Of a stretch of 53,888 nt of DNA, positions 4,750-25,284 are shown piece by piece. The stretch covers positions 1 to 53,888 of the IMG/VR virus record IMGVR_UViG_3300031578_000046. One strand, 5' to 3'. Position 1 is the stretch's first letter, and every line of letters begins with the position of its first letter. Under the pieces are notes generated by a model. That model was given only the letters and a program-made list of their open reading frames with translations. It was not told where the DNA came from and did no database searches. Both the position numbers and the translations under genes were made by a program. Source of the stretch: a virus.

Positions 4750-4980
4750 TTAATAATTATCGGTTACAAGTTTTAAACCATTAAATTTATAAATTTTTAA
4801 TTTTCGTTTTATTGCCCCCTGATAGCTTATATTTTCATCTTTGGCATATTGTGATAATGTTTTAATATTTAAAATAATAGCAACGTGTTCAAAAATTTGA
4901 ACCAAATCATCATTATTTAGCTCTCCCTTATGAATACATGCAAATAATCTATCTTTTATAATAAGCGATCTATCAGACAT
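4750..4980 (-). CDS. Small helical protein at the 3' end of cassette island 1
   Basis: 76 aa. The C-terminal half (TLSQYAKDENISYQGAIKRK) resembles a helix-turn-helix that reads like a MerR/excisionase-type recognition unit, so DNA binding is plausible. Its first and last segments occur again, fused by an internal deletion, at 22785-22830 and 25039-25084. Each time they lie immediately downstream of a cassette island on the gene strand. A role as an island-boundary gene is therefore suspected. Confidence 0.72.
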   Translation of the reverse strand: MSDRSLIIKDRLFACIHKGELNNDDLVQIFEHVAIILNIKTLSQYAKDENISYQGAIKRKLKIYKFNGLKLVTDNY

Positions 4981-4991
4981 TTATGTTAAGT

Positions 4992-5026
4992 TTAAAATTT
5001 TGAACTGACTTTATACAATTGTTAGC
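4992..5026 (-). repeat. Island 3'-boundary repeat, copy 1
   Basis: Consensus on the gene strand: GCTAACAATTG, then TAAAGT, then AGTTCAAAATTTTAAACT. Related copies end islands at 17041-17075, 22840-22871 and 25094-25125. It supplies the last left-half core (GCTAAC) and an AT-rich near-palindrome but no right half. Confidence 0.75.
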
Positions 5027-5294
5027 GGCAAGCGAAGAAAGGCTTCGGCATTGGCTTCCAATATATTATTTTATTACTTGGTGGTGGACTGCTTTTATAT
5101 CTATTTTCCCACTTCTCACTACCATCGGTAAATTTAAAGTGCATTAAATGGTGTATTGTTCTGTTTTCAAGCATTACAATATATTCTGCTGTCATATCTG
5201 TTTGCGGTGGATAAAAAATATATGAACGCCAGCCGCTAACAAGCAATATAAAAAATGCCTTAAAGTGTGCTAAAATTGAAGTTCTTGTTTTCAT
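5022..5294 (-). CDS. Cassette protein, chimeric start inside attC-like site
   Basis: 90 aa. I chose the ATG at 5294 (MKTRTSILAH) over the longer frame because the upstream part lies over the neighbouring gene. The first 20 residues are encoded within the attC-like site 5235-5364 and end in LLVS, where GTTAGC is the right core. The cassette body begins GWRSYIFYPP. The stop codon TAA is part of the next core, GCTAAC, at 5021-5026. The N-terminus is hydrophobic (FKAFFILLV) and could act as a signal anchor. No family recognised. Confidence 0.72.
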   Translation of the reverse strand: MKTRTSILAHFKAFFILLVSGWRSYIFYPPQTDMTAEYIVMLENRTIHHLMHFKFTDGSEKWENRYKSSPPPSNKIIYWKPMPKPFFACR

Positions 5295-5364
5295 ATTTAC
5301 TTTATTTTTAATTGATAAATTAGTTCTTTGTAGTCGGCACTTTTCATATTGCCGACCATTAGGC
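5235..5364 (-). repeat. attC-like site 1 (start codon inside)
   Basis: 130 bp. The left half begins GCCTAATGG at the DUF3307 stop codon with left arm GCAATATGAAAAGTGCC. The right arm is GGCATTTTTTATATTGC, ending in core GTTAGC. The arms pair almost completely. The interior holds the ATG of the next gene. Confidence 0.82.
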
Positions 5365-5697
5365 AACATAATGCGCTACTGCTGCCATCCAAAGTATATG
5401 TATAACGTTATCAACTATCACATGCCCCCAAAATTTGCTAAAATCATTCTGGAATTTACCAGTCACCCTGCAAAACCAAGCTACAAAATGTGTTCGGTCT
5501 TGTATGTAATGTTGTACTGCAATAAGCAATAGTTGTATTAAACTTAGTTCTGTAAATATAAACGGTATCATGTACGTTAAAATGTGTACACTACACGCAA
5601 AGTCGCTTTTCTTTTTGTTACCTGCCATCCAATCATTTTGTAGCAAGTAGTCACCTATTAAGTGGGCTAATATCCAAGGCAAATTTAGTCCTATCAT
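5359..5697 (-). CDS. DUF3307-like membrane protein
   Basis: 112 aa from the ATG at 5697, eight bases after the core GTTAGGC. LPWILAHLIGDYLLQNDWMA followed by a basic NKKK matches the DUF3307 signature (AHLIGDFLLQ-W). Two or three transmembrane helices follow (YMIPFIFTELSLIQLLLIAV; HVIVDNVIHILWMAAV). DUF3307 proteins are small inner-membrane proteins of unknown function found in phages and bacteria. The stop TAA lies in the core GCCTAAT of site 1. Confidence 0.86.
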   Translation of the reverse strand: MIGLNLPWILAHLIGDYLLQNDWMAGNKKKSDFACSVHILTYMIPFIFTELSLIQLLLIAVQHYIQDRTHFVAWFCRVTGKFQNDFSKFWGHVIVDNVIHILWMAAVAHYVA

Positions 5698-5706
5698 AAT
5701 TACGTT

Positions 5707-5834
5707 GCCTAACAATAAATATAGCAAATAGCCAAGTTAGGCGTGCATTTGTCACTATCTGCGTGTTTATAATCATTTTACTGTATTCAAAGTTTGTGCT
5801 ATTTATGGCTACTTGCCATATTCTCAACGTTAGC
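5707..5834 (-). repeat. attC-like site 2
   Basis: 128 bp. Left half begins GCTAACGTTG with arm ATATGGCAAGTAGCCA. Right arm TTGGCTATTTGCTATATT ends in core GTTAGGC. It is nearly identical to site 8 at 8618-8746, which follows an unrelated cassette. An ATG in the interior opens a frame through the right arm. Confidence 0.88.
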
Positions 5835-5857
5835 AAACATTAAAACGATTTGCTAAC
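5829..5857 (-). repeat. Empty mini-cassette
   Basis: Only 29 bp lie between right core GTTAGC and left core GCTAAC. The sequence is the start (GTTAGCAAATCGTTTTA) and end (AATGTTTGCTAAC) of the cassette at 12240-12474 joined together. It is therefore a deletion remnant of a gene cassette. Confidence 0.75.
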
Positions 5858-6499
5858 ACGGTATATAACCAATGCTTACCGTGTAGCTTCGTATTAAGTT
5901 TCTGCAAGTGCTTTAAAAATTTTGCCAACGCTCTTTAATTTTTTTCAAAAATTATTTTTTAGTTTCATCACAAATATTATATTTTGGACAATAAGTACAT
6001 GGCTGTGGAGGTTTTAAAAAATCATCATTTTTTACAGTAAAAAATTCATATAAGTCTTTGCATAAATATCTATCACACTTTAAAGGCATTCTTTCACCTC
6101 CATTTTTAATTATTGATTTTATTCTTAATTTACCATAACGCCAAGGTGATTCTAATTTATATGAATACATTTGTATATTTTTTACTTTACAATAAAAATC
6201 TATACTTAAATACTCACCATCTTCAGATGTTTCAGTTTCTTTTATTAAATGTTTACAAAAATTAAAACACGAATGTTTATTATTAGGATTTTCTTTACAT
6301 GCTTTTTCGTGTTTTATGCAATCATTTGACCTTTTATAAATTTTATTACAGTAATCGCATTTAAAAGCTTCTATTTTTTCCATAATTTATTTATATTAAT
6401 GTTAAAAAATGCCCCCTAAAAATTTTTAAAACAGGAACTCCTGTTCTCGTATCGAAATTTGTAGGTTTATTCGCACTGGTCATATACCCACCGTTATGT
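5852..6499 (-). repeat. attC-like arms enclosing a complete gene (site 3)
   Basis: The left half at 6470-6499 (CATAACGG then GGGTATATGACCAGTGC) pairs with the right half at 5852-5880 (GCATTGGTTATATACC then core GTTAGC). The 648-bp span is far longer than other sites because the gene 5952-6383 lies between the arms. Confidence 0.7.
5952..6383 (-). CDS. Zinc-finger-like Cys-rich protein
   Basis: 143 aa. FKCDYCNKIYKRSNDCIKH with a following C (KAC) reads as a C2H2/C2HC zinc finger at residues 8-30. Further Cys clusters follow (CFNFCKHL; CDRYLCKDL) and a C-terminal CTYCPKYNIC. Multiple zinc sites are likely and nucleic-acid binding is plausible. It is not a typical cassette gene: it lies between two arms of an attC-like repeat and is as AT-rich as core phage genes. 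Confidence 0.75.
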   Translation of the reverse strand: MEKIEAFKCDYCNKIYKRSNDCIKHEKACKENPNNKHSCFNFCKHLIKETETSEDGEYLSIDFYCKVKNIQMYSYKLESPWRYGKLRIKSIIKNGGERMPLKCDRYLCKDLYEFFTVKNDDFLKPPQPCTYCPKYNICDETKK

Positions 6500-6547
6500 A
6501 CAAGCGCAAAGCAGTACATCTAATAAAGTTCAGTGGGAGTAATTTTA

Positions 6548-6736
6548 TTATTTTTTCTTCCTACCTCCTCTTTTAACATCAAGTTTTCTAACTTCTAATT
6601 GCCAATCTAAATGTATCGGAAATTTTTTACCTTTTAAAGTATGATAATTATAACCTAATTCATCACACATAATTTTTAAATTACCAAACGGCATAATTTG
6701 CTTTTTATACCAATCAATATATAGTATTGTTTTCAT
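6548..6736 (-). CDS. Small basic protein
   Basis: 62 aa with a strongly basic tail (VKRGGRKKK), probably nucleic-acid binding. MCDELGYNYHTLKGKKFPIH may form an HTH-like unit. It overlaps the preceding small gene by 23 bases. It is the last of three genes in one long cassette (about 6493-7229) that has its own promoter. Confidence 0.65.
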   Translation of the reverse strand: MKTILYIDWYKKQIMPFGNLKIMCDELGYNYHTLKGKKFPIHLDWQLEVRKLDVKRGGRKKK

Positions 6737-6866
6737 TTTTATTTTCCCAAAATATTATTGATGATTCAAATGGATATATAACTCTTGCTTGATGTTTTCC
6801 ACATTTAATACATTTTCTTTCAGAAGGAGTTATCATAATCCATTTATGTCTATGTAATAATTTCAT
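6714..6866 (-). CDS. Small zinc-ribbon-like protein
   Basis: 50 aa (MKLLHRHKWI...). C-x2-C in RKCIKCGKH with flanking His suggests a small zinc site. It overlaps the upstream gene by four bases (ATGA) and runs 23 bases into the next, a typical coupled arrangement that supports this short gene. Function unknown. Confidence 0.66.
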   Translation of the reverse strand: MKLLHRHKWIMITPSERKCIKCGKHQARVIYPFESSIIFWENKNENNTIY

Positions 6867-7054
6867 ATTTGTGTAGCTTTTAAATTACTTAAATCTGGAA
6901 AATTTATTAAACAATTGAGTTTATTAATCGCTCTGTGTTTTGCATTATCTTTAGTTGTGGCATCAATAAACATTGTTTTTCCTTCTGGAAATAATTTTTG
7001 AGCAAGTTTACAATTTCGCCCCTTACTACTTAATTCTACTGCAAATGTTTTCAT
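6863..7054 (-). CDS. Small unknown protein
   Basis: 63 aa. MKTFAVELSSKGRNCKLAQKL followed by KDNAKHRAINKL looks like a compact alpha/beta peptide. No family recognised. It is first in a three-gene set behind the promoter at 7082-7112. Confidence 0.66.
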   Translation of the reverse strand: MKTFAVELSSKGRNCKLAQKLFPEGKTMFIDATTKDNAKHRAINKLNCLINFPDLSNLKATQI

Positions 7055-7081
7055 ATATTATGTGATTTTTTTAATTATACG

Positions 7082-7112
7082 TAAATATAGTTATTATGTT
7101 TCTAATAAACAA
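7082..7112 (-). promoter_or_regulatory. Bacteroidota-type promoter for genes 7054-6548
   Basis: On the minus strand TTG (7112-7110), 20 bases, then TATATTTA (7089-7082), one base from the TAnnTTTG -7 consensus. It sits 28 bases before the ATG at 7054. Confidence 0.6.
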
Positions 7113-7220
7113 GAATTATAGTGTTTATTTTTCTATTTTAATTAAAATATTTTTGCCATCACACAAAAAATAATAAAATTACCTTTCTTCGTAGCGTGCT
7201 AAGTGGCTGATAATGCGCCA

Positions 7221-7276
7221 GTACATAACACGCAATAAAGCACATTAAAACGATGCCTTATTGCTGTCCGTTGTAC
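7221..7276 (-). repeat. attC-like site 4 (short)
   Basis: 56 bp. It runs from GTACAACGG with arm GCAATAAGGC to arm GCTTTATTGC and core GTTATGTAC. The 234-bp stretch 7055-7286 otherwise holds only the promoter at 7082-7112. Confidence 0.75.
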
Positions 7277-7286
7277 GCAATAAAAA

Positions 7287-7493
7287 TTACTTACGTACTA
7301 GTATATTTAATGGTTCTTTGCCTTTTCCTATCAAATATTTATCTACCGCAATTGCAGCTTCTCTTTCTGTATCATAAGTTTTTCTGCAAACATTTGGCAG
7401 TGTTATCATCCAGTAATTTTTATCAGTAGTTTGAGCACACTGCTGTACATATTTGTATTTACTTTTTCCGTATTTTGTTGTCTGTTGTGCCAT
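7287..7493 (-). CDS. AP2-domain-like DNA-binding protein
   Basis: 68 aa from the ATG at 7493 (MAQQTTKYGK), 20 bases after core GTTGTAC. KYKYVQQ, then NYWMITLPNV, then KTYDTEREAAIAVDKYLIGK follows the AP2 pattern of three strands (W in strand 2) and a helix (TE-EAA-A-D). Phage AP2 domains bind DNA and often accompany HNH nucleases or act alone. One gene per cassette. Confidence 0.72.
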   Translation of the reverse strand: MAQQTTKYGKSKYKYVQQCAQTTDKNYWMITLPNVCRKTYDTEREAAIAVDKYLIGKGKEPLNILVRK

Positions 7494-7512
7494 AAGTCGT
7501 AATTTTAAAAGC

Positions 7513-7608
7513 GTACAACACGCTGTATAGTTAATAAGCCGGATAGTTTTGTGCGTTGATTTGGGGCTGTGTGGTCGGCTTACATAACCATACAGCCATC
7601 CATTATAA
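7513..7608 (-). repeat. attC-like site 5
   Basis: 96 bp. Left half starts ATAATGGATG at the stop of the next gene with arm GCTGTATGGTTATGTAAGCC. Right arm GGCTTATTAACTATACAGC ends in GTGTTGTAC. Confidence 0.85.
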
Positions 7609-7896
7609 ACAAGCGTAAATAAGCACACCTAAGATTAAACCAACTACAAAACCTACAATTCTGTTATTTATTGGATCGTTCCAAAAACGCCAGTTTATAA
7701 CATTTTGTAAATGCAAGCCGTTTGCGCTCGCATCAGCTTTCACAGCCGCACTATCTAAACTATCAAATACGGTGTCTTTAATCTCATCCCATATTTCAGG
7801 TTCGTGTTTTTTAATCAACCTTAATAATTTAAAGTAAGTTTCTCCATTCATTGAAACTCCGCTAATTGTCACTTTTACATCTTTAATATCTGCCAT
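7603..7896 (-). CDS. Chimeric cassette protein with C-terminal membrane helix
   Basis: 97 aa. Residues 1-65 are soluble and acidic/helical (ETYFKLLRLIKKHEPEIWDE) and lie between the arms of site 6. The right core GTTATA falls at about residue 66, after LHLQN. The cassette body then gives INWRFWND and one transmembrane helix (IVGFVVGLILGVLIYACL) at the C-terminus. No family known. The two halves look like independent modules joined at the core. Confidence 0.7.
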   Translation of the reverse strand: MADIKDVKVTISGVSMNGETYFKLLRLIKKHEPEIWDEIKDTVFDSLDSAAVKADASANGLHLQNVINWRFWNDPINNRIVGFVVGLILGVLIYACL

Positions 7897-7980
7897 CGCT
7901 CGGTTATTTATAATTTATATTCACGTTCATAATTTTGTGCTATTTTCAACAACGGCCAGCACTTACAAGTTGCCGTTAGC
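7695..7980 (-). repeat. attC-like site 6 with long interior
   Basis: Left half GCTAACGGCAACTTGTAAG at 7957-7980, followed by TGCTGGCC, pairs with right arm GGCTTGCATTTACAA and core GTTATAA at 7695-7722. The 286-bp span includes the start and first two-thirds of the gene at 7603-7896. Confidence 0.78.
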
Positions 7981-8281
7981 GGCAAGCTGGCCTCCACAAT
8001 TCAAATTTATCCATTAATCCGTCATCCCTCATCACCTTACCTACTCCTATATATTCAGCTTCTACCCAATCTATATTTCCTTTATATCTAATTCTATCAC
8101 CTATTTCTGGCTTTTCATCTTCAATATTCAGCCAGCCGCTAACATGCGGTATAGGTAATTTGCCGTCCTCCGATTTAAGTTTGTGCAAATCTGCCAAAAA
8201 ATTATCAACTAATTCTTTTGTTTCAAATCCTTCCAATGCTTTAGAAAGATTTTCATACTTTGTTATTAATTTCTGTATCAT
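7976..8281 (-). CDS. DUF551-like protein with shuffled N-terminus
   Basis: 101 aa. GWLNIEDEKPEIGDRIRYKG and the ending FELWRPACR match DUF551 (W-I-----LPE-G--V ... W-P). The core GTTAGC encodes Val-Ser immediately before the GW that opens the domain, at about residue 48. The 47 residues before it are helical and encoded between the arms of site 7. DUF551 is widespread in phages, of unknown function. The stop TAA lies in core GCTAAC. Confidence 0.82.
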   Translation of the reverse strand: MIQKLITKYENLSKALEGFETKELVDNFLADLHKLKSEDGKLPIPHVSGWLNIEDEKPEIGDRIRYKGNIDWVEAEYIGVGKVMRDDGLMDKFELWRPACR

Positions 8282-8361
8282 AATTTTTTTAAGTTAAGTA
8301 TTTCAATTCAAGTCTGGTGCGGTGCGTGGGGCAAACATACCCATACCGCCAGCCGTTAGGC
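8138..8361 (-). repeat. attC-like site 7 with long interior
   Basis: Left half GCCTAACGGCTGGCGGTATG with GGTATGTTTGCC pairs with right arm GGCAAATTACCTATACCGC and core GTTAGC. The span is 224 bp. Six extra bases sit next to the left core, as in attC spacer asymmetry. Confidence 0.85.
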
Positions 8362-8607
8362 ACAATGGTAAGTTGCACCTTTCTTCCATTCCTCCACACG
8401 CTTTTGTGCTGCCTCTAATGTTTTAAAGCTTTTACTAAATGGTTGTAGTATCGGCCAAGTTTGTATCACACCACCCCACGCATTTGTTCTGTACCAACTC
8501 CATTCTTTGCGTTTCCACCAAAGCATTCCTTTTTCTTCATATCCTCGTATTTGTATCTCAAATGCTCCGCAATATTCTCTAATTCTATATTCTACTTCTT
8601 TTTTCAT
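8356..8607 (-). CDS. Trp-rich cassette protein
   Basis: 83 aa. The first half (EYRIREYCGAFEIQIRGYEE) is beta-strand-like, then KGMLWWKRKEWSWYRTNAWG is Trp-rich, followed by a helix (FKTLEAAQKRVEEWKKG). This strand-helix pattern with a terminal amphipathic helix resembles small phage proteins of unknown role. The stop TAA falls in core GCCTAAC. The ATG follows core GTTAGGC of site 8. Confidence 0.75.
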   Translation of the reverse strand: MKKEVEYRIREYCGAFEIQIRGYEEKGMLWWKRKEWSWYRTNAWGGVIQTWPILQPFSKSFKTLEAAQKRVEEWKKGATYHCA

Positions 8608-8617
8608 AAACCACTGT

Positions 8618-8746
8618 GCCTAACAATAAATATAGCAAATAGCCAAGTTAGGCTTGTATTTGTCACTATTTGCATGTTTATAATCATTTTACTGTATTCA
8701 AAGTTTTGTGCTATTTATGGCTACTTGCCATATTATCAACATTAGC
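8618..8746 (-). repeat. attC-like site 8, duplicate of site 2
   Basis: 129 bp, nearly identical to 5707-5834 although the flanking genes are unrelated. Core GTTAGGC lies at the right end on the gene strand, and the left core has decayed to GCTAAT. Confidence 0.88.
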
Positions 8747-8748
8747 AA

Positions 8749-9000
8749 CTATAAATTGCCTTCAATAAATCTATCTACGTGTCTTTCTGGTATGTACAGG
8801 TGCATTTCCTCGTCCTCATTAATCCATTCACGAAAGGCAATTAACAGTTCCCTTCGGTTGCTAACAACGGGTATAGCAAATAATTTTACTATCTTTTCTG
8901 TGTAATTGTTAATACTTTCTTGTATTTCACCAATTGTATTATCTCTCTCGGTAATCTGATTCTCAAATTCAATTAATAATTTTTTTACTTCTTTTTTCAT
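8749..9000 (-). CDS. Chimeric helical cassette protein
   Basis: 83 aa. Residues 1-45 form a coiled-coil-like helix (LLIEFENQITERDNTIGEIQ) encoded between the arms of site 9. At about residue 46 the core GTTAGC encodes Val-Ser, after which the body begins NRRELLIAFREWINEDEE. Both halves are mostly helical and acidic. No known family. The stop TAG precedes the decayed core GCTAATG by three bases. Confidence 0.72.
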   Translation of the reverse strand: MKKEVKKLLIEFENQITERDNTIGEIQESINNYTEKIVKLFAIPVVSNRRELLIAFREWINEDEEMHLYIPERHVDRFIEGNL

Positions 9001-9061
9001 AATATAGTTTTTTAGTGTTTCAAATCCGTAAAATTACATTGCCATACCCAAAACGTTATAA
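8860..9061 (-). repeat. attC-like site 9 (start codon inside)
   Basis: Left half TATAACGTTTTGGGTATGGC with AATGTAATTTT pairs with right arm AAAATTATTTGCTATACCC and core GTTAGC. Span 202 bp. Confidence 0.84.
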
Positions 9062-9295
9062 AACATTTGCCAACCGCACTATTGTTGTCAATTTAATTTC
9101 TTCTTTTTTCAGTGGACATTCATTTGGGATATTTCCGTCACGGCTATTCTCGTGTGTTATTATCATACACTTGTATGGGTCTTTAAGCTTTTCAAAATAT
9201 GGATGACCACATTTCATAGCATTTCCTGATGTCGTGTAGAATGGACATTCATTCCAACATCCTTTTACTTTTTTGGTTTTCTTTATAATTTCCAT
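9056..9295 (-). CDS. Cys-rich probable zinc-binding cassette protein
   Basis: 79 aa. CWNECPFY, MKCGHPYF, YKCMII and NECPLKKEE provide five or six Cys and His in zinc-knuckle-like spacing (C-x3-C ... C-x-H ... C ... C). It is probably a small zinc protein, of a type common in phage accessory regions. The ATG lies 14 bases after core GTTATAA, and the stop TAA is in core TATAAC. Confidence 0.75.
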   Translation of the reverse strand: MEIIKKTKKVKGCWNECPFYTTSGNAMKCGHPYFEKLKDPYKCMIITHENSRDGNIPNECPLKKEEIKLTTIVRLANVL

Positions 9296-9308
9296 CGTTA
9301 AAAACGTT

Positions 9309-9435
9309 TTATAACAACGTATAAAATTAATTGCTACGTTATTGGGTTATTTAATGTATTTACTTTTAATCAATTTTTAGTAGTTTGCGAAAGTCGTGCA
9401 TCTAACACGCAACTAATCTTATACCAACGTTATAC
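9309..9435 (-). repeat. attC-like site 10
   Basis: 127 bp. GTATAACGTTGGTATAAG with ATTAGTTGC pairs with GCAATTAATTTTATAC and core GTTATAA. The sequence upstream of its left core (9431-9493) recurs at 50481-50543. Confidence 0.83.
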
Positions 9436-9493
9436 ACAAGCGTAAGAAAGTTTCGTTCATTTAATCAACACCTGTGCAACCTTGCCATAATTA
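9431..9493 (-). repeat. Dispersed repeat, copy shared with 50481-50543
   Basis: About 63 bp are nearly identical at the two places, covering the 3' ends of two unrelated genes plus the start of the attC-like left half. Exchange between islands 1 and 5 is the simplest explanation. Confidence 0.85.
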
Positions 9494-9679
9494 TTTTTTG
9501 CCTTCGCTCTTACAATTTTTCAAATTGTTTAGGAATTGGTTTAATGGTTCTTCCCAATGTTTAGCAAGTTTTTGAGAGCCGTTAACAGCTTTTACTAAAG
9601 TAGTGTCGGGCATCTTTAATTGTCGTTCTATTCCTCTAAGGCTTAACGAGTCTTTATTTTTTCTTAGCCATTCTAACAT
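9491..9679 (-). CDS. Small HTH-like cassette protein
   Basis: 62 aa. LSLRGIERQLKMPDTTLVKAV reads as a helix-turn-helix, and WEEPLNQFLNNL follows. It is possibly a transcription regulator or antitoxin-like protein. It is the second gene of a two-gene cassette: its ATG overlaps the stop of the upstream gene (ATGTTAG), so translation is probably coupled. Confidence 0.75.
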   Translation of the reverse strand: MLEWLRKNKDSLSLRGIERQLKMPDTTLVKAVNGSQKLAKHWEEPLNQFLNNLKNCKSEGKK

Positions 9680-10050
9680 GAAGCTCCGCTTAAATAGTTA
9701 GCCATATTGCATGTATCAAATAATGATGCAGGTTTTTTAATCCTTTCATTATTTTCTTCTAATCCTTTTAGGATCCATTCTAATTTTTGAATGTCTTGTA
9801 TTTGCTCCATTATCGTAATTCTGCCTTTACTTTCTCCTTCGCTACCAGTTTTATGAACTAAACACACAACACCACCAACCGAAACATAAGCACCTATTAT
9901 TTCATATTGGATTAAATCATCTTCAATATAATCAACCCAACCGCAACTACAATAAGCGTTTGTTTTTATACTATTATTAATAATACGCTCAGCCTCATTA
10001 CACATTAGCTTGATAAGGGCTTGTTTTGCTTCTTTAATTTCAGTTTTCAT
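9673..10050 (-). CDS. Unknown protein, first gene of a two-gene cassette
   Basis: 125 aa. N-terminal helices (KEAKQALIKLMCNEAERIIN) lead to a region with CSCGWVDYIEDD and IGAYVSVGGVVCL, then a helical C-terminus. Probably one alpha/beta domain of unknown family. The leader before the ATG contains two copies of an AATATCC-type motif (10072-10117), so this cassette may carry its own regulated promoter. Confidence 0.72.
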   Translation of the reverse strand: MKTEIKEAKQALIKLMCNEAERIINNSIKTNAYCSCGWVDYIEDDLIQYEIIGAYVSVGGVVCLVHKTGSEGESKGRITIMEQIQDIQKLEWILKGLEENNERIKKPASLFDTCNMANYLSGASC

Positions 10051-10071
10051 AATCTTAGTTTTTCGTTAAAC

Positions 10072-10117
10072 AATATCCAAATATAAGGGTAATATATTTA
10101 ATATCCTAATATAAAGG
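10072..10117 (-). promoter_or_regulatory. Tandem direct repeats with possible -7 element
   Basis: On the plus strand AATATCCAAATATAAGG (10072-10088) and AATATCCTAATATAAAGG (10100-10117) are near-identical and 28 bases apart. The first contains TATATTTG on the gene strand, an exact TAnnTTTG. They may be a promoter overlapped by regulator sites for the 9673-10050 gene. Confidence 0.5.
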
Positions 10118-10118
10118 T

Positions 10119-10286
10119 AAAAAAAGAACCCCTCCCTAAAAAATAATTATTACTTCCGTGTTTCAAATGTAGGTAAGTGATTAAACGCCAGTGTATAACA
10201 ACGCATAAAAATAAAAGCCTTTGGAAGCTTATTATTTCAAATTAACGTTGTAGTGTCGGCTTCAATTCTTATGCAAACCGTTAGGT
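10119..10286 (-). repeat. attC-like site 11 plus flank, duplicated at 51089-51255
   Basis: The site proper is 10195-10286, from ACCTAACGG with arm GCATAAGAATTGAAGCC to arm GGCTTTTATTTTTATGC and core GTTGTTA. About 76 further bases after the core are shared with 51089-51165. Past that point the two copies diverge into unrelated genes. Confidence 0.88.
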
Positions 10287-10496
10287 TTCATTTGCCACCG
10301 CCACACGGTTATCAGACTCCCACGCCTCAATTGCAAAATGCTGTGACCGTATGTAGTTTTCATGACTACGATAGCCACATTTAGAACATTCAAGCCTAAA
10401 AGCAACACCGTTAAACGAACTGCCATTGTCTCCACATTCTTTGTCTATTTCTGCTTCTCCTCCGCATTTTTTACATGGTATTTTTTCTGTACTCAT
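10281..10496 (-). CDS. Lar-like zinc-ribbon protein (possible restriction alleviation)
   Basis: 71 aa from the ATG at 10496 (MSTEKIPCKK). IPCKKCGGEAEI, a later ECSKCGYRS and the ending FAIEAWESDNR follow the Lar/PF14354 pattern (CPFCGG ... C-x2-CG ... A-EAWN-R). Lar of phage Rac alleviates type I restriction, but most family members are untested. It is carried in a single-gene cassette; the stop TAA is in core CCTAAC. Confidence 0.8.
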   Translation of the reverse strand: MSTEKIPCKKCGGEAEIDKECGDNGSSFNGVAFRLECSKCGYRSHENYIRSQHFAIEAWESDNRVAVANET

Positions 10497-10529
10497 AATC
10501 TTGTTTTTACCCCACCGCACAAAACGAAA

Positions 10530-10658
10530 ACCTAACAATTTATATATTGCAAATTTTTTAGTAATTGTAGGTGAGTGGTTATTAATTTATTTTATCTCTA
10601 ATTGTTAATTTATCTCATTCTGGTTGCAAAATTCGACAACATATAAGTTGCCGTTAGC
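10530..10658 (-). repeat. attC-like site 12
   Basis: 129 bp. GCTAACGGCAACTTATATG pairs with TATATAAATT and core GTTAGGT. Confidence 0.8.
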
Positions 10659-10670
10659 AGCCATACAAGG

Positions 10671-10847
10671 CTACTTTTCATATCTTATTGCTCTGTCTTT
10701 CATTATGTGCCCACACTCAATGCATGGCTTTTCAAACCACACTTTACCATCATGCTTACATCCTTTACATACAGTTATTTCAACCTTAGTAGTACGGCTG
10801 CTAACAATATGTTTAGGTAATTGGGATTTTGTGTTATCTTGTTTCAT
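10671..10847 (-). CDS. Small zinc-ribbon cassette protein starting inside attC-like site
   Basis: 58 aa, MKQDNTKSQLPKHIVSSRTT. The ATG at 10847 and the first 16 residues lie in site 13, and the core GTTAGC encodes the Val-Ser of HIVSS. The body has VCKGCKHDGKVWFEKPCIEC with two C-x2-C pairs, a zinc ribbon. Its own cassette has no upstream ATG before the zinc ribbon, so expression depends on the attC-borne start. Stop TAG at 10671. Confidence 0.76.
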   Translation of the reverse strand: MKQDNTKSQLPKHIVSSRTTKVEITVCKGCKHDGKVWFEKPCIECGHIMKDRAIRYEK

Positions 10848-10926
10848 TGCATTTCAATTTTAAGTTTATCAATATTTGGTAGGGTAGTGCAAGTAATCCC
10901 AACTACCCAAACACTCAACATTAGGG
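10800..10926 (-). repeat. attC-like site 13 (start codon inside)
   Basis: 127 bp. CCTAATGTTGAGTGTTTGGG with TAGTTGGGATT pairs with AATCCCAATTACCTAAAC and core GTTAGC. Confidence 0.87.
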
Positions 10927-10930
10927 CGAA

Positions 10931-11251
10931 TTAAGCCGACTTAATAAGTTTAAGGCTATCTTCACCAAAACCCGAAAAAGAATTGAAATTATAGCAGGTG
11001 TTTGCTTTTACAAATGCTTTCTGCCAAAGTTCCATCCCTTTGCTTCCAAGTACATATAATGGAGTTCCGTCACAATCTCTAACGCATCCAATTATATACA
11101 GTCTCATTCCTGCATATTCACAATCTTCATCCCAAGCTATAATTTCAACCAAGTCATCTACTTTATACTTGTGCTGTTTAGCGTTATTTTCTTCTCTATA
11201 AGTTTTCCCAGTTTTCGGGTTTTTAAGGTCTGCAATATTTATAAGTTCCAT
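10931..11251 (-). CDS. Cassette protein with SH3/KOW-like beta core
   Basis: 106 aa. KYKVDDLVEIIAWDEDCEYA, then MRLYIIGCVRDCDGTPLYVL looks like a small beta barrel similar to SH3/KOW-like folds. The C-terminus includes NFNSFSGFGEDSLKLI. Exact family unknown. It has its own ATG, 16 bases after core GTTAGGG, and the stop precedes core CCTAAT. Confidence 0.73.
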   Translation of the reverse strand: MELINIADLKNPKTGKTYREENNAKQHKYKVDDLVEIIAWDEDCEYAGMRLYIIGCVRDCDGTPLYVLGSKGMELWQKAFVKANTCYNFNSFSGFGEDSLKLIKSA

Positions 11252-11267
11252 ATCTAAAAATTAACTC

Positions 11268-11365
11268 GCCCTAACAATAAATAAACCCAATATGGCAGGG
11301 GCAAGGTTCTGCCATTGTTTAAAGTTCGGTAGGCTGCCAAACTGTGTTTATTAAAACCGTTGTGT
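11268..11365 (-). repeat. attC-like site 14
   Basis: 98 bp. ACACAACGG then AATAAACACAGTTTGGCA pairs with TGCCATATTGGGTTTATT and core GTTAGGGC. Confidence 0.86.
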
Positions 11366-11371
11366 GTAATA

Positions 11372-11665
11372 CTACTTACTAAGCTCAATTAAGCAATTCT
11401 TTAGTATTTCAAACGCATCCTCTTGCGCTGCTTCTGTTGTGGAAAATCCAGCCCCACGCTCACTCGGTTCATGCAAGCTTTCTTCTAACACTTGCAATGC
11501 TTTTTCGGCAGCATCTTCTATTGCGTTATCCACACGCTCACGCTCTTCAATTTCTTCCATAGCTATTCCATAACCTTCCCAGTTATCTACTCCAGCGCAT
11601 TCCAACGCACGCATTTTAGCTTCAATCAACTCTAATTCTTTTAATCTACTTTTTGAAATTTCCAT
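11372..11665 (-). CDS. Acidic helical cassette protein
   Basis: 97 aa, almost wholly helical and acidic: KSRLKELELIEAKMRALECA, MEEIEERERVDNAIED and EKALQVLEESLHE. No Trp-rich or Cys motif. Small acidic helical phage proteins can mimic DNA or bind host enzymes, but nothing specific supports that here. Base composition is visibly less AT-rich than the phage core. Confidence 0.72.
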   Translation of the reverse strand: MEISKSRLKELELIEAKMRALECAGVDNWEGYGIAMEEIEERERVDNAIEDAAEKALQVLEESLHEPSERGAGFSTTEAAQEDAFEILKNCLIELSK

Positions 11666-11697
11666 TTTATTTAAGTTTTGCGGCTTAAAGTACTACA

Positions 11698-11790
11698 CAC
11701 AACAACGTATATAGTTAAAAAGCCATGTTAATATTCGTTCATTTAATCAGCGTTTGCAGTTGGCTTTCAAACCATATACCAACGTTAGCG
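11698..11790 (-). repeat. attC-like site 15
   Basis: 93 bp. CCGCTAACGTTGGTATATGG with TTTGAAAGCCA pairs with TGGCTTTTTAACTATATAC and core GTTGTTG. Confidence 0.86.
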
Positions 11791-11797
11791 GTAATTG

Positions 11798-12178
11798 CTA
11801 CACCACTATCGGCTCTTCGCAAAATGGACATTCGCCAATCTGTATTACTTTTGTTTTGTAGAAGCTCCACGCACTAGCCCTATCAATTTCACTTTCGGTT
11901 ATTGGTGTATACCAGTTTCCAGAAACTTCGCCTGTAATATCATAATATCGTCCATTGTATTTAGTTATTACGTGGTCTTTTTCTTTGCTTATAAAAGCCT
12001 CACTTTCTGGGAAGAATGTTTTTAGCAACAAGTGAAATTGATAACACGCACCATTCATATAAATCATTTCAATATACCTATCTGTTTGGCGAAGTGCGTT
12101 AATAAACCGCAACATACCGCTAACAATACCTATATTTAATTGGGCGTTTACTGCCTCTTCAAACTCTTTTGCTTCCAT
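11798..12178 (-). CDS. Chimeric cassette protein with conserved DHVI-YYDITGE domain
   Basis: 126 aa. After 19 residues encoded within site 16, core GTTAGC (IGIVSG) opens the body. GACYQFHLLLKTFFPESEAF, then DHVITKYNGRYYDITGEV resembles a widespread phage and bacterial small domain of unknown function. The C-terminus has IGECPFCEEPIVV, a C-x2-C zinc-like tail. It has the same gene-site geometry as its neighbours. Confidence 0.76.
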   Translation of the reverse strand: MEAKEFEEAVNAQLNIGIVSGMLRFINALRQTDRYIEMIYMNGACYQFHLLLKTFFPESEAFISKEKDHVITKYNGRYYDITGEVSGNWYTPITESEIDRASAWSFYKTKVIQIGECPFCEEPIVV

Positions 12179-12245
12179 TTTGCTTTACTTTATATTGATA
12201 ATTTAGTGCTATTAATGCCCAACTAAACATAGCCGAGCCGTTAGC
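12119..12245 (-). repeat. attC-like site 16 (start codon inside)
   Basis: 127 bp. GCTAACGGCTCGGCTATG with TTTAGTTGGGC pairs with GCCCAATTAAATATAGG and core GTTAGC. The interior is related to that of site 20 at 18569-18696. Confidence 0.89.
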
Positions 12246-12251
12246 AAACAT

Positions 12252-12455
12252 TTATAAACCGAATCGTTCAGGTTTATAAATTTCGTGCTTCCAATCTTTT
12301 AAATGAGTTTCAGTACTCTTTTTAATTTTTGCGTGTGCAGGTATTTTTTGGTCAGTAAGCAAACATTCGAATATCAAGCCAGTAAATACCTTAGGAGCTG
12401 TATAGTCTTCTAACCAGTAAACTATTCCTATTTCTAAATTTTGTGTGTAGTGCAT
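12252..12455 (-). CDS. First cassette gene of island 1
   Basis: 67 aa from the ATG at 12455 (MHYTQNLEIG). A GTG in the core could add seven residues but is less likely. EIGIVYWLEDYTAPKVFTGL and LKDWKHEIYKPERFGL are unrecognised. The stop TAA lies 9 bases before core GCTAAC. Its two ends, without the middle, survive as the empty cassette at 5829-5857. Confidence 0.7.
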   Translation of the reverse strand: MHYTQNLEIGIVYWLEDYTAPKVFTGLIFECLLTDQKIPAHAKIKKSTETHLKDWKHEIYKPERFGL

Positions 12456-12468
12456 AATAAAACGATTT

Positions 12469-12505
12469 GCTAACACAACCTATACACCATAAAGCGATAT
12501 AGTAT
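12469..12505 (-). repeat. Half attC-like site at the 5' end of island 1
   Basis: Right arm and core only (GCTTTATGGTGTATAGG then GTGTTAGC). No matching left half is visible upstream, so this is the island boundary, comparable in position to attI or a secondary target. Confidence 0.6.
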
Positions 12506-17040: not shown

Positions 17041-17075
17041 TTAAAATTTTGAACTAACTTTATTCAATTGTTAGC
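17041..17075 (-). repeat. Island 3'-boundary repeat, copy 2
   Basis: Same GCTAACAATTGAATAAAG plus AGTTCAAAATTTTAAAC consensus as the other island ends. The DNA beyond it differs from the other three copies. Confidence 0.75.
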
Positions 17076-17448
17076 AATCAGTTTGCCGAGCAGAGCAATC
17101 ATAATCACCGTGTTTACATATATTGTTTTCATTATTTGCACAAGCATTTGAGTAGCAAACCGAATTGCTAACAAGTTGTATAATTAATGCTTTGTTCTCG
17201 TCTGTAATTTTTGCCCACGCACACTTTTCTTTGTCAAGTCCGTACAAGGCATTGCTAATCTCATTGTTAATATCTTCCCACCTATCATCTTCCTCAATCT
17301 CCTGCTCTTCCTCACATCCGCATTGCCTGCATATAGTTGTGTTTAAATGCCACTTATTACTACATACACCATCGTTTAGGTCAAATATTGCTCCGCAATG
17401 CTCGCAGGGTGTTGGCATTTCCATTTGTTCTAAATCATATTCTTCCAT
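17071..17448 (-). CDS. Chimeric zinc-binding cassette protein
   Basis: 125 aa. N-terminal module: CEHCGAIFDLNDGVC and CRQCGCEEEQ (zinc ribbon) followed by acidic helices. At about residue 94 the core GTTAGC encodes Val-Ser, and the last 32 residues are a separate Cys-rich module (NSVCYSNACANNENNICKHG). A similar short Cys-rich tail follows a core in the 23315-23683 gene, suggesting a shuffled C-terminal module. The stop TAA is in core GCTAAC. Confidence 0.76.
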   Translation of the reverse strand: MEEYDLEQMEMPTPCEHCGAIFDLNDGVCSNKWHLNTTICRQCGCEEEQEIEEDDRWEDINNEISNALYGLDKEKCAWAKITDENKALIIQLVSNSVCYSNACANNENNICKHGDYDCSARQTDC

Positions 17449-17535
17449 CGCTCGTAAATTTTAAAGTTTGTATCTCGTATTATCTTTTCTGCAAATTTGG
17501 TAAAGCGCACTAATCATACAACAGTACCGTTATGC
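17167..17535 (-). repeat. attC-like site 18 with very long interior
   Basis: Left half GCATAACGGTACTGTTGTAT with GATTAGTGC pairs with right arm GCATTAATTATACAACTT and core GTTAGC. Span 369 bp, with 93 codons of the downstream gene inside. Confidence 0.8.
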
Positions 17536-17841
17536 CCCATTAGGCTTAACATCTTCTACTCTATATTTAAGTACTTCTGTTTCTGAAACACCGCAACACA
17601 CGCATCTAATTACATCTACTATTTCATCGTGCATTATTTCGGCTGCAGGGCTTTGTACTGGCACATCTACCCAAGTGTTACTACGTAGTCGCCCAATAAC
17701 TTTGTGTGTGTATTGTTCATTTTTACAGCCATGTCTTTTCTGCTCAATTATTCCGTAATCTCCAAAATCTAAAACGGGGCATAACAATGCATCATATTGC
17801 ATAGCCTCGTTGTTATCGGTAGTTTCGTTCTTTTTATTCAT
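17530..17841 (-). CDS. Chimeric cassette protein, zinc-like CVCCG motif
   Basis: 103 aa. The first 20 residues (MNKKNETTDNNEAMQYDALL) lie in site 19, and the core GTTATGC follows directly, opening the body CPVLDFGDYGIIEQKRHGC. Later VIRCVCCGVSETEVL contains closely spaced Cys. No named family. The stop TAA is in core CATAAC. Confidence 0.74.
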   Translation of the reverse strand: MNKKNETTDNNEAMQYDALLCPVLDFGDYGIIEQKRHGCKNEQYTHKVIGRLRSNTWVDVPVQSPAAEIMHDEIVDVIRCVCCGVSETEVLKYRVEDVKPNGA

Positions 17842-17908
17842 TTCAGTTTATATTTTAAGGTTTGTAATTCTAATCAAAAGGCTACGCAACATATGCTAGC
17901 CATTATCG
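17779..17908 (-). repeat. attC-like site 19 (start codon inside)
   Basis: 130 bp. GATAATGGCTAGCATATG with TTGCGTAGCC pairs with GGCTATGCAATATGATG and core GTTATGC. Confidence 0.84.
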
Positions 17909-17913
17909 GCAAC

Positions 17914-18624
17914 CTAAAAAGACAGCGTACCTTGTTTGATACTTTCTGAAATTCGTTTGATTGCCTTGTCAATATATTCTTTGTCGATTTCACACGCTGT
18001 TAAGTGTAAATTCATTTTATCTAATCGGTTTGCTTTATCAACTGCCAAAGCTATTGAGCCGCTCCCGAAATGGGTATCTAATATCTTCATTCCTTCGGTT
18101 GCGTAGTTTTTTAAAGTATAACTATACAAACATATTGGTTTTTGTGTGGGATGGAACGTGCCCCCTTCACGCACTAAAACAAGTGGATTTTTAGTATATT
18201 CACGCAAAGCCCTATTAAATGAAGTGTAAGCAAGTTCAGCATCGGAACTGCTAAAATTACCACGGTCTTTTCTCCATATAATCCAGCCCATCGAAGGCTT
18301 TAAATATTCCACCATATAGTTAGCTCCCCAAATTATTTGGTTTTTGCTTACTCTGTATAATTCTTTAAAGTAATCTTCTGTTGGTATGTTTGTATCCCAG
18401 CCTTTAAATTCGTGGGCTTTTCTTCCTCCGTGGCTTCCGCTTGTTTGTTTTGCACCATCATACCCAATCCCATAAGGTGGGTCAACAATAGCCAAATCAA
18501 AGTATTTATCAGGGTATTGCTTCATAATTTCCATACAATCAGCGTGGAAAAGAGAAAGAAAAGGCAGCCGATAACACTCGCTATATGCAATTTGGGGGTC
18601 GGTGGTATTCGTAAGTTCGTTCAT
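17914..18624 (-). CDS. DNA methyltransferase, beta class (N4/N6)
   Basis: 236 aa. DPPYGIG (48-54, catalytic motif IV) precedes HPTQKP and ILDTHFGSGSIALA (SAM motif I), the beta-class order. It methylates DNA, adenine N6 or cytosine N4. No restriction enzyme is adjacent, so it is probably an orphan that protects phage DNA or regulates. The first 16 residues (ending IAYSE) come from within attC-like site 20; the body starts at the Cys-Tyr (TGTTAT) core and continues RLPFLSLFHADCMEIM. Confidence 0.93.
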   Translation of the reverse strand: MNELTNTTDPQIAYSECYRLPFLSLFHADCMEIMKQYPDKYFDLAIVDPPYGIGYDGAKQTSGSHGGRKAHEFKGWDTNIPTEDYFKELYRVSKNQIIWGANYMVEYLKPSMGWIIWRKDRGNFSSSDAELAYTSFNRALREYTKNPLVLVREGGTFHPTQKPICLYSYTLKNYATEGMKILDTHFGSGSIALAVDKANRLDKMNLHLTACEIDKEYIDKAIKRISESIKQGTLSF

Positions 18625-18696
18625 TTAATTTACATTTGTTAAGTTTGATAGTGCAGTGCTTTTAATTCCCAAACTGCACATAGCGGAAACGTTAGC
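18569..18696 (-). repeat. attC-like site 20 (start codon inside)
   Basis: 128 bp, 5' end of island 2. GCTAACGTTTCCGCTATGTG with CAGTTTGGG pairs with CCCCAAATTGCATATAGC and core GTTATCG. Confidence 0.86.
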
Positions 18697-18730
18697 AATA
18701 ATTAGCCATCACACGCCATTCATTCTACTT

Positions 18731-22736: not shown

Positions 22737-22871
22737 TATGACTTTTATCATGTTTTGTTATTTATAATCATTATTAATAATTATCAGTTACAAGTTTTAA
22801 ACAAATTAATAAGCGATCTATCAGTCATTTATATTTAGTTTAAAATTTTGAACTAACTTTATTCAATTGTT
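22737..22871 (-). repeat. Boundary repeat with deleted gene, copy 3
   Basis: 135 bp, about 97% identical to 24991-25125. It contains only the first and last codons of the gene at 4750-4980 (now MTDRSLINLFKTCN then stop) plus the island 3'-end element. Confidence 0.85.
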
Positions 22872-22879
22872 GTGCGCAA

Positions 22880-23170
22880 TTAAAACGCACCTTCCTGCTC
22901 AATTTCTTCTATCTTTAATTCAAGTTCATCCACATTTTCTGCTTCTTCAATACCCCATTGTCTTAGTTCGTCATTACTTGCCCTTAATTCTTCCAAATAA
23001 TCAATGCAACTTTCAAGTTCATAAGACATATCAGCGGCTGCGGAGTATAAATCATCGTATTCAAGTCCTTCTAACTCTCTGTCTTTATACAATACTTGCT
23101 TTATAGCTTTTATGTATTTATCAATATCAGGGCAAGTATGCTTTATCGGTTCTCTAATATGTGAAGCCAT
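22880..23170 (-). CDS. Acidic coiled-coil cassette protein
   Basis: 96 aa. An N-terminal helix (CPDIDKYIKAIKQVLYKDRE) is followed by two long acidic helices (LRQWGIEEAENVDELELKIE). The ATG lies just after core GTTGTGC of site 21. The stop TAA lies close to core CACAAC. Function unknown. Confidence 0.72.
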   Translation of the reverse strand: MASHIREPIKHTCPDIDKYIKAIKQVLYKDRELEGLEYDDLYSAAADMSYELESCIDYLEELRASNDELRQWGIEEAENVDELELKIEEIEQEGAF

Positions 23171-23179
23171 AATTAACTG

Positions 23180-23304
23180 CGCACAACACTAAATAAAACA
23201 AATAGCCGTGCTATGCGGTCTTTTTAAAGCTATTTGTAAGTTTGTAATATATTTAATCTTTGTAGCTATTATCTTGGGCTACTAGTTTTATTATTTACGT
23301 TAGC
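23180..23304 (-). repeat. attC-like site 21
   Basis: 125 bp. GCTAACGTAAATAATAAAAC with TAGTAGCC pairs with GGCTATTTGTTTTATTTAG and core GTTGTGC. Its interior resembles that of site 33 at 51556-51684. Confidence 0.87.
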
Positions 23305-23314
23305 AACAAGCCTG

Positions 23315-23683
23315 CTATTCAAAGCATTTTTTATTCTTGTTGCATACGTGGTTTATTGGTCTTATAGTGCAATTACTAGCATTTTTGCAGGCCAGATTGC
23401 TAACACCAAATATATTTAATGCTTGGTTGGTGCTTTTAATAGGCATTTCGCCCTCACACACTTTTTGCAAAGCTTCTATATCTATCAAGTTTAGTTCTTC
23501 AGCAATACTATATGCTATCTCATACGTGCCTTTTGCTTTTTTGGGCTTATGGTTTCTAAACTCAATTTCTCTGCCTAACTCAAAGTCGTATCTCTTATCT
23601 GTAAAAGGCACTTGCTTCGTGTAGCTGTAATCAACTATTAGCTTCCTTTGGTGTCCATCAAATTTTATGTTATATATTGCCAT
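23315..23683 (-). CDS. Chimeric cassette protein with Cys-rich tail
   Basis: 122 aa. The N-terminal 95 residues (MAIYNIKFDGHQRKLIVDYS, then ELNLIDIEALQKVCEGE) lie between the arms of site 22. Core GTTAGC encodes Val-Ser, then SNLACKNASNCTIRPINHVC gives a short Cys-rich module related in spacing to the tail of the 17071-17448 protein. Stop TAG. Confidence 0.75.
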   Translation of the reverse strand: MAIYNIKFDGHQRKLIVDYSYTKQVPFTDKRYDFELGREIEFRNHKPKKAKGTYEIAYSIAEELNLIDIEALQKVCEGEMPIKSTNQALNIFGVSNLACKNASNCTIRPINHVCNKNKKCFE

Positions 23684-23762
23684 CGCTCTGTATTTTTATC
23701 GTTTGTACTATTAATTAAAGTTCGTGCTAATTTTACGCACTAAACATATTTTTTTCGTTAGC
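23399..23762 (-). repeat. attC-like site 22 with very long interior
   Basis: GCTAACGAAAAAAATATG with TTTAGTGC pairs with GCATTAAATATATTTGG and core GTTAGC. Span 364 bp, like site 18. Confidence 0.76.
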
Positions 23763-23967
23763 GGTCATTGTCGTTCTTTTTCAACCATCGCATAAATGAG
23801 TTAAACCCTGCATCTATTTCGGCTTCTGGGCTATATGGTGCAACTTCTCCTAAGTTTGTAGCTTTCCATTCATCTACCAATTTTTCTACTTTTTGGTAAA
23901 ACAACGAACCGCTAACACTAAATATAGGCAAATTGCCGTTTTTATTTGTTTCTTTATTTGTACTCAT
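23758..23967 (-). CDS. Chimeric cassette protein
   Basis: 69 aa. MSTNKETNKNGNLPIFSVS is the leader from within site 23 (core GTTAGC = Val-Ser). The body is GSLFYQKVEKLVDEWKATNL, then EIDAGFNSFMRWLKKN, a small helical protein. The stop TAA is in core GCTAAC. Confidence 0.72.
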   Translation of the reverse strand: MSTNKETNKNGNLPIFSVSGSLFYQKVEKLVDEWKATNLGEVAPYSPEAEIDAGFNSFMRWLKKNDNDR

Positions 23968-24037
23968 AGGTCAGTTTATTTTATTAAGTTTCTACTAATT
24001 TTCAAGGGCAATCAGCCCATATTATTTTCCATTATAA
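23911..24037 (-). repeat. attC-like site 23 (start codon inside)
   Basis: 127 bp. TATAATGGAAAATAATATG with GGCTGATTGCC pairs with GGCAATTTGCCTATATTT and core GTTAGC. Confidence 0.85.
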
Positions 24038-24220: not shown

Positions 24221-24231
24221 GTTTTAAAAGT

Positions 24232-25194: not shown

Positions 25195-25284
25195 AATGCG
25201 TAAATTCCATGCTTACTTTCTACCTCGTTTCTAAGTCGGTGGGTAATCGAGCAATTAAAAATAAAAGCCCTCACACCGTTCTAA
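25188..25284 (-). repeat. attC-like site 25 (weak)
   Basis: TAGAACGGTGTG to core GTTATCG, with limited arm pairing. Listed because it occupies the expected place. Confidence 0.4.

What the first reader, a model, noticed from the sequence alone, without database searches (positions are those of the whole stretch)
5020..12505. attC-like cassette island in a phage genome (islands 1-5)
Seen: in 5.0-12.5 kb all genes are in one direction and nearly all are separated by imperfect inverted repeats (56-286 bp; many 125-130 bp). They begin with a core such as GCTAAC or TATAAC overlapping or just after the stop codon and end with GTTAGC, GTTATA or GTTAGG. Arms pair with several extra bases next to the left core, as in attC. 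The same structure recurs in 17.0-18.7, 22.9-24.3, 25.1-26.8 and 49.7-53.2 kb. Known: in integrons, attC sites have RYYYAAC and GTTRRRY cores, with extrahelical bases and cassettes of one or two genes. Inference: these are integron-type gene cassettes in a Bacteroidota phage.
Basis: partly seen in the sequence, partly recalled or inferred. Interest (0 to 1): 0.95.

Follow-up and report, generated by a model that had tools for sequence, protein, structure and literature searches.

The report
Inverted, integron-like cassette arrays in phage
This phage carries about 25 small swappable genes, each bounded by a folding DNA site like those of bacterial integrons; the sites belong to an apparently undescribed class common in Bacteroidota, and in phages the genes sit backwards, so that the recombination site itself seems to encode the start of many of the proteins.

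Summary
On the minus strand, 5.0-12.5 kb and four more islands hold about 25 short cassettes. Each starts GTT.. and ends ..TAA(C/T) with 9-10 complementary bases; imperfect hairpins lie between them. Start and end cores match within a cassette far beyond chance (sum 90; permuted pairings mean 27, max 56). The sites work like attC but are not canonical attC: a covariance model from IntI-adjacent Bacteroidota attC finds nothing in the window. A model from the window's own sites (R2) finds them in other phages and in 141 of 395 Bacteroidota genomes, against 1 of 299 control genomes. At the upstream end of nine bacterial R2 arrays sits a tyrosine recombinase that is neither IntI nor Xer and lacks the IntI insertion. 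In bacteria genes lie opposite to the R2 strand (32:3); in phages they lie on it, so the site is at the gene's 5' end. In 10 of 21 window cassettes and 23 of 37 in other phages the reading frame starts inside the site and runs through its core; in IntI arrays 0 of 65. The stop codon is often the TAA of the core. The window has no recombinase; movement would need one in trans. No activity has been shown.

The parts
5020..12476 (-). Island 1: about 16 cassettes. Start..end on the minus strand: 12474-12240, 12124-11784, 11703-11359, 11275-10920, 10805-10653, 10536-10280, 10199-9429, 9315-9055, 8865-8741, 8624-8355, 8143-7975, 7701-7602, 7519-7270, 7229-6493, 5713-5358, 5240-5021; plus a gene-less mini-cassette near 5858-5830
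   Evidence: start/end core complementarity of 9-10 bases and flanking hairpins
17056..18702 (-). Island 2: methyltransferase cassette 18575-17902, cassette 17785-17529, and a gene ending at a TAAC core near 17073
22869..24240 (-). Island 3: cassettes 24238-24031, 23916-23757, 23187-22869, and gene 23683-23315 between two R2 sites
25129..26810 (-). Island 4: cassettes 26759-26377 (HTH regulator), 26297-25902, 25786-25628
49976..53186 (-). Island 5: cassettes 52889-52652 and 51168-50479, unit 51562-51249 by eye, and weaker R2 sites 53064-53186 and 49976-50117
12110..12251 (-). Attachment site (R2 class) with a start codon in its loop; frame MEAKEFEEAVNAQLNIGI|VSGM.. runs into the YunG-like gene (12178-11798)
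   Evidence: R2 102 bits; Pfam PF24591 starts at residue 22
10791..10931 (-). Attachment site with leader MKQDNTKSQLPKHI|VSSRTT..
   Evidence: R2 96 bits
8859..9061 (-). Long attachment site with a 45-codon leader ..IVKLFAIPV|VSNRRELL..; a similar arm precedes another body in L008 (..IVKIFAIPV|VMQRSELL..)
8137..8361 (-). Long attachment site with a 46-codon leader ..GKLPIPH|VSGWL..
7695..7982 (-). Longest attachment site (about 288 bp) with a 65-codon leader joined to a short, apparently membrane-spanning body (7701-7602)
5226..5369 (-). Attachment site with leader MKTRTSILAHFKAFFILL|VSGWR..
   Evidence: R2 96 bits
18561..18702 (-). Attachment site with leader MNELTNTTDPQIAYSE|CYRL.. of the DNA methyltransferase 18624-17914
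   Evidence: R2 106 bits; homologs align from residue 20-24
17771..17913 (-). Attachment site with leader MNKKNETTDNNEAMQYDAL|LCPVL..; the same arm precedes a different body in L008
   Evidence: R2 81 bits; homologs align from residue 24
23902..24042 (-). Attachment site with leader MSTNKETNKNGNLPIFS|VSG..; its arm is shared with at least six other phages before different genes
8610..8752 (-). Attachment site without leader, 94.7% identical to 5699-5840 although flanked by other genes
5699..5840 (-). Attachment site without leader, near-copy of 8610-8752
10122..10291 (-). Attachment site plus 5' region duplicated at 51090-51260 (97.5%); the match begins at the TAAC core upstream of the hairpin
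51090..51260 (-). Second copy of the site plus 5' region at 10122-10291
4960..5026 (+). Repeated element at the end of island 1, one of four copies (others near 17039-17075, 22807-22871, 25061-25129); possible attI-like recipient or shared promoter
   Evidence: 91-95% identity between copies, always directly after the last core and with no hairpin

Best explanation
The islands are arrays of site-specifically recombined gene cassettes that work like integron cassettes but belong to a separate class found in Bacteroidota and their phages. Each cassette is one folding attC-like site plus, as a rule, one gene. On the coding strand the order is C - left arm - loop - right arm - GTT - gene body - TAA, and the exchange point would be TAA^C, just after the stop codon. 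Compared with bacterial arrays of the same class the gene is turned round, so the site lies at the gene's 5' end; the start codon and first 11-65 codons of many genes lie inside the site, and the frame runs through its inner core. A tyrosine recombinase related to, but distinct from, IntI and Xer, lacking the IntI insertion, sits at the upstream end of bacterial arrays and probably acts on these sites; the window phage has none and would need it in trans. Shown here: cassette signature, site class by covariance model, gene orientation, open frames through the site, position and phylogeny of the recombinase. Inferred: recombination itself, the exact cut, use of the in-site start codons, which enzyme acts, and the attI-like role of the repeated element.
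For: Cassette start/end complementarity 90 against at most 56 in 5000 permutations. Directional G.T oppositions in the arms, 43:1. R2 model: 141 of 395 Bacteroidota genomes against 1 of 299, arrays in bacteria, other phages on the gene strand; R1 and R2 exclude each other. Genes opposite to R2 in bacteria 32:3, on the R2 strand in phages. Duplicated units share upstream hairpin, 5' region and gene end, not the downstream hairpin. Islands end at a core followed by a repeated element without a hairpin. Frames through the site: 10/21 and 23/37 against 0/65; homology begins at or just inside the boundary. Recombinase within 0.8-2.8 kb of the array in eight cases and 8.6 kb in one, at the upstream end each time, one group apart from IntI and Xer (97/95 support), no IntI insertion.
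Against: No recombination has been observed. No PF00589 enzyme in the window or in 17 of 19 other phage records. About a third of the window's end cores are AAT, which may be inactive. Phages other than the window and G001 were found with a pattern resembling the leader, so their leader rate is biased. R2 does not reach P12002L, whose site is the only one of this layout near an experiment. The control phylum is richer in GC.
Confidence: 0.68

Rival explanations
1. Ordinary integron cassettes (a CALIN) with divergent but canonical attC, moved by a host IntI.
For: IntI passes its cut-off in 105 of 395 Bacteroidota genomes; IntI arrays show the same start/end complementarity; IntI1 recombined sites of Polaribacter phage P12002L (PMC9892861), and that phage shows the same layout here.
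Against: R1 model: no hit in the window, R2: none in IntI loci. Most R2-array genomes examined have no IntI among their listed matches but have another recombinase at the array. No bulged bases in the arms; genes inverted.
Confidence: 0.17
2. Same class, but each hairpin belongs to the gene before it: the site of one cassette lends start codon and N-terminus to whichever cassette follows, so that proteins are assembled by shuffling.
For: The same arms stand before different bodies in frame in several phages; 18 of 25 junctions share one phase.
Against: Duplicated units carry the upstream hairpin; the last gene of several islands has no hairpin after it; bacterial arrays of the class have the gene on the other strand.
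Confidence: 0.08
3. The hairpins are terminators, mRNA structures or small palindromic repeats, and the mosaic gene order comes from ordinary homologous recombination between them.
For: On the RNA the stems are well paired through G-U; phages are mosaic and this one has a recombination-type exonuclease.
Against: Core complementarity belongs to the cassette and not to the hairpin (mean run 0.86 within hairpins); no Rfam family; arrays of single genes in many bacteria with a recombinase at one end.
Confidence: 0.05

Closest known systems
Integrons (IntI plus canonical attC), including the IntI arrays of Bacteroidota
   Same: Single-gene cassettes, hairpin site with GTT/AAC cores, core complementarity within the cassette, recombinase at one end of bacterial arrays.
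   Different: Site not matched by the canonical model; G.T oppositions in place of bulges; recombinase outside the IntI clade and without the IntI insertion; in phages the gene is inverted and partly encoded in the site.
CALINs in phages (Qi et al. 2023, PMC9892861)
   Same: Cassettes without integrase in phages, among them a Polaribacter phage with the same layout.
   Different: That work reports 17 CALINs in 10,705 phage genomes by canonical methods; in the passages searched it does not describe this site class, the inverted genes or translated sites. Here one phage has about 25 cassettes in five islands.
Fused or start-less cassettes in class 1 integrons (PMC4670013)
   Same: A reading frame that depends on sequence outside the gene body.
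   Different: There fusion follows loss of part of the attC; here the site is intact and the frame runs through it.
XerC/XerD and NCBIfam NF040815 (tyrosine recombinase / integron integrase)
   Same: NF040815 is the best NCBIfam match of the array-linked recombinases (198-237 bits for the three complete proteins, cut-off 220).
   Different: A broad naming model; the enzymes group apart from the genomes' own Xer proteins.

Membership tests
Integron cassette array | Cassettes bounded by cores that match within the cassette (exchange at G^TT) | tested here: met
   sum 90 against a maximum of 56 in 5000 permutations
Integron cassette array | attC recognised by a covariance model of bona fide attC | tested here: not met
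   R1 from IntI-adjacent Bacteroidota attC: no hit up to E 10. The published IntegronFinder and HattCI models could not be run here
Integron cassette array | R''/R' cores RYYYAAC and GTTRRRY | tested here: inconclusive
   GTT and AAC kept; inner bases such as GTTAGCG or GTTATAA often break the consensus, and AAT occurs
Integron cassette array | Extrahelical bases in L'' | tested here: not met
   arms mostly of equal length with G.T oppositions, 43 G:T
Integron cassette array | attC at the 3' end of the gene | tested here: not met
   phage genes on the R2 strand, bacterial genes opposite 32:3; duplicated units
Integron | IntI with its specific insertion | tested here: not met
   no tyrosine recombinase in the window; array-linked enzymes in bacteria have 32-33 residues where IntI has 74
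Integron | attI site next to the array | tested here: inconclusive
   four copies of one element at island ends, role unproven
Integron | Recombination of the folded single strand by the integrase | not testable with these tools
   needs an assay
Known RNA element | Match to an Rfam family | tested here: not met
   none at gathering scores

The most novel reading that the evidence does not exclude
A second integron-like system, with its own recombinase group and its own hairpin site, is widespread in Bacteroidota; phages use it with inverted, partly start-less gene bodies, so that the recombination site is translated and serves as an exchangeable N-terminus. One arm is read in one frame as a soluble leader (NGNLPIFS|VSG) and in another as the hydrophobic part of a signal-peptide-like N-terminus (TAICLYLVLAVC).
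Probability: 0.45. Interest if true: 0.93.

Novelty: new variant of a known kind. Interest (0 to 1): 0.86.

Why it matters
If true, canonical attC models miss a cassette system present in about a third of the sampled Bacteroidota genomes and in their phages. It would mean that integron-like gene shuffling is run by a recombinase without the insertion reported as essential in IntI, would give phages a route to exchange small accessory genes (a methyltransferase, regulators, many unknowns) between unrelated genomes, and would offer a natural case of a recombination site that is also coding sequence.

Tried and rejected
Exact 7-base core pairs and a simple arm score did not stand out in this AT-rich genome; the detector needed long arms plus cassette complementarity. 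Relatives by portal and DnaB gave only a 99.97% identical contig, so gene order could not be compared between moderately close relatives. Rfam: nothing. I first read the leaders as start codons lent by the preceding cassette; duplicated units, island ends and the bacterial orientation made the gene's own 5' site the better reading. Host IntI acting on these sites was tested with model R1 and lost ground. tblastn with two leader-type proteins found nothing in isolates. The genome pattern scan gave nine hits, several of them in GC-rich or unrelated genomes and so probably chance. A first recombinase tree was spoiled by wrongly extracted IntI frames and was rebuilt. A stricter count of start codons stops at the first ATG of a frame and so undercounts; both counts are given.
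Full report
WHAT IS THERE. The window is an IMG/VR virus record of 53,888 bp. It encodes TerL, portal, major head protein, DnaB helicase and an exonuclease, with a 177-bp terminal repeat; a 99.97% identical contig runs across the join. So it is a complete tailed-phage genome, circular or permuted. All relevant genes are on the minus strand, and cassettes are given in that direction.

THE CASSETTES. In island 1 (12476 to 5020) nearly every gene lies in a unit that starts with GTT plus 6-7 variable bases and ends with the complement of those bases plus AAC or AAT: GTTAGCGGTA..TTACCGCTAAC, GTTATAAAAC..GTTTTATAAC, GTTAGGCACA..TGTGCCTAAC. After 9-10 pairs there is usually a mismatch and three or four more pairs. 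Between units lies an imperfect hairpin, mostly 86-130 bp, some 195-288. The detector picks 27 cassettes, two or three of them probably chance; under the related filter used for the control it gives 27 on the minus strand and 1 in a shuffle. In a fairer test, with hairpins chosen alone, the cores at the two ends of a cassette agree (sum 90) while permuted pairings reach at most 56, and the two cores of one hairpin agree poorly (mean run 0.86). Exchange at the core produces this; terminators or repeats do not.

CLASS OF THE SITE. IntI is common in Bacteroidota: 105 of 395 sampled genomes pass the curated cut-off. I took 20 regions around such integrons, built a covariance model R1 from 25 of their sites, and found 84 sites in these loci but none in the window. 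A model R2 from 20 window sites finds eight further window sites at E up to 0.1 (49976-50117, 52875-52982, 26745-26810, 7215-7281, 53064-53186, 8242-8366, 23645-23768, 6406-6504) and sites in other phages, on the gene strand, but none in the IntI loci. R2 matches 141 of 395 Bacteroidota genomes, and 1 of 299 in the phylum of G024, a Sphingorhabdus genome by its record title; that control phylum is probably richer in GC. The bacterial matches form arrays of single genes that R1 does not see (two weak hits). So there are two classes of site in Bacteroidota, and the phage belongs to the second. E-values of these models are rough.

ORIENTATION. In bacterial arrays of the second class genes lie on the strand opposite to R2 in 32 of 35 intervals: gene first, site after, as in integrons. 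In the phages genes lie on the R2 strand, so the site is at the 5' end. Independent support: the duplicated unit at 10283 and 51252 shares the upstream hairpin, the 5' region and the gene end, but not the downstream hairpin; in phage contig G001 two neighbouring units with different genes share upstream hairpin, 5' region and end. Four islands end right after the last core with the same element and no hairpin (near 5020, 17075, 22871, 25129), and other phages have repeated elements of their own in that place. Read on the other strand this is where an attI would lie; that role is inferred, and a shared promoter is possible.

TRANSLATED SITES. Because the site is 5' of the gene, start codons can lie inside it. 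In 10 of 21 window cassettes that pass the filter, and 23 of 37 in other phages, the frame starts in the site, passes the GTT core and covers the cassette; in IntI arrays 0 of 65 do. The phages other than the window and G001 were found with a pattern that resembles such a leader, so only the window and G001 (three of six units) are unbiased. A rule that stops at the first ATG of each frame gives 25 of 73, still far from 0 of 65 (p about 1e-8). Several bodies have no in-frame start codon near their beginning: in the 17785-17529 cassette homologs align from residue 24, just inside the boundary; the methyltransferase 18624-17914 aligns from residue 20-24 in most records, and the YunG-like protein from residue 18-22, its Pfam domain starting at 22. 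The core is read in the same phase in 18 of 25 cases (p about 1e-4), and in 30 of 73 cassettes the stop codon is the TAA of the core itself. The same arm occurs before unrelated genes in at least six phages; read in one frame it gives NGNLPIFS|VSG, in the next TAICLYL|VLAVC or VLTAG, which look like signal peptides, in G010 and G018. Hence arms and gene bodies have been recombined at the inner core at some time, by whatever means. Use of these start codons is inferred from open frames.

RECOMBINASE. Neither the window nor 17 of 19 other phage records has a PF00589 recombinase. Of ten bacterial genomes with R2 arrays, eight have one or two close to an array (nine enzymes: G062, G070, G206, G135, G222 twice, G327, G250, G390): eight at 0.8-2.8 kb and one at 8.6 kb, each at the upstream end of the array when gene direction is taken as opposite to R2, as intI is in integrons. 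These nine, three related enzymes and the two phage enzymes (G012, G004) group apart from IntI and Xer (97/95; IntI 100/100, Xer 100/99), keep the catalytic Arg, HxxR and Tyr, and have 32-33 residues where all 25 IntI have 74. The G012 copy is a fragment lying beside its cassettes. That this enzyme acts on the sites is inferred.

COMPARISON. CALINs in phages are known (PMC9892861), including P12002L, which shows the same layout here although R2 does not reach it. A term search of that paper found no mention of start codons or translation. IntegronFinder 2.0 reports few integrons in Bacteroidetes (PMC9024848). A survey of tyrosine recombinases notes that the IntI insertion is essential for integron function though not fully conserved in its integron-like subgroup (PMC8138268), which makes an array-linked enzyme without it noteworthy. 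Literature searches cover only the open library held here and found no description of this class.

VERDICT. Observation confirmed; interpretation right in kind, wrong in class and orientation. I file it as a new variant of the integron kind, not as canonical integron cassettes, because defining features were tested and not met. Functional claims remain inference.

Noticed in passing
window 1-177 and 53712-53888: 177-bp direct terminal repeat, 99.4% identical; the genome is complete and circular or permuted.
   Followed up: yes
L148 (IMGVR_UViG_3300017782_004483): A 4.4-kb viral contig made up almost wholly of nine such cassettes.
   Followed up: partly
G250, L189 and L190: A dense bacterial R2 array of about 20 cassettes in which one 822-bp unit (GTTGTAAACAGTT..AATTGTTTACAAC) recurs five times.
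   Followed up: no
L129 (G306:C13:160000-177742): An IntI-adjacent array whose sites match R1 on the strand opposite to the larger open frames and which holds two duplicated cassettes; possibly an inverted-gene array of the canonical class too.
   Followed up: partly
105 of 395 sampled Bacteroidota genomes carry an integron integrase over the curated cut-off, far more than the few reported for RefSeq genomes in IntegronFinder 2.0.
   Followed up: no
window 5952-6383: A gene that seems inserted in the loop of a site whose arms lie near 6490 and 5855.
   Followed up: no
window 5830-5858: A gene-less mini-cassette GTTAGCAAATCGTTTTAATGTTTGCTAAC whose ends match those of the first cassette (12474-12240), as if its gene had been deleted.
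   Followed up: no
window 1917-2699: Radical SAM protein gene between TerL and island 1.
   Followed up: no
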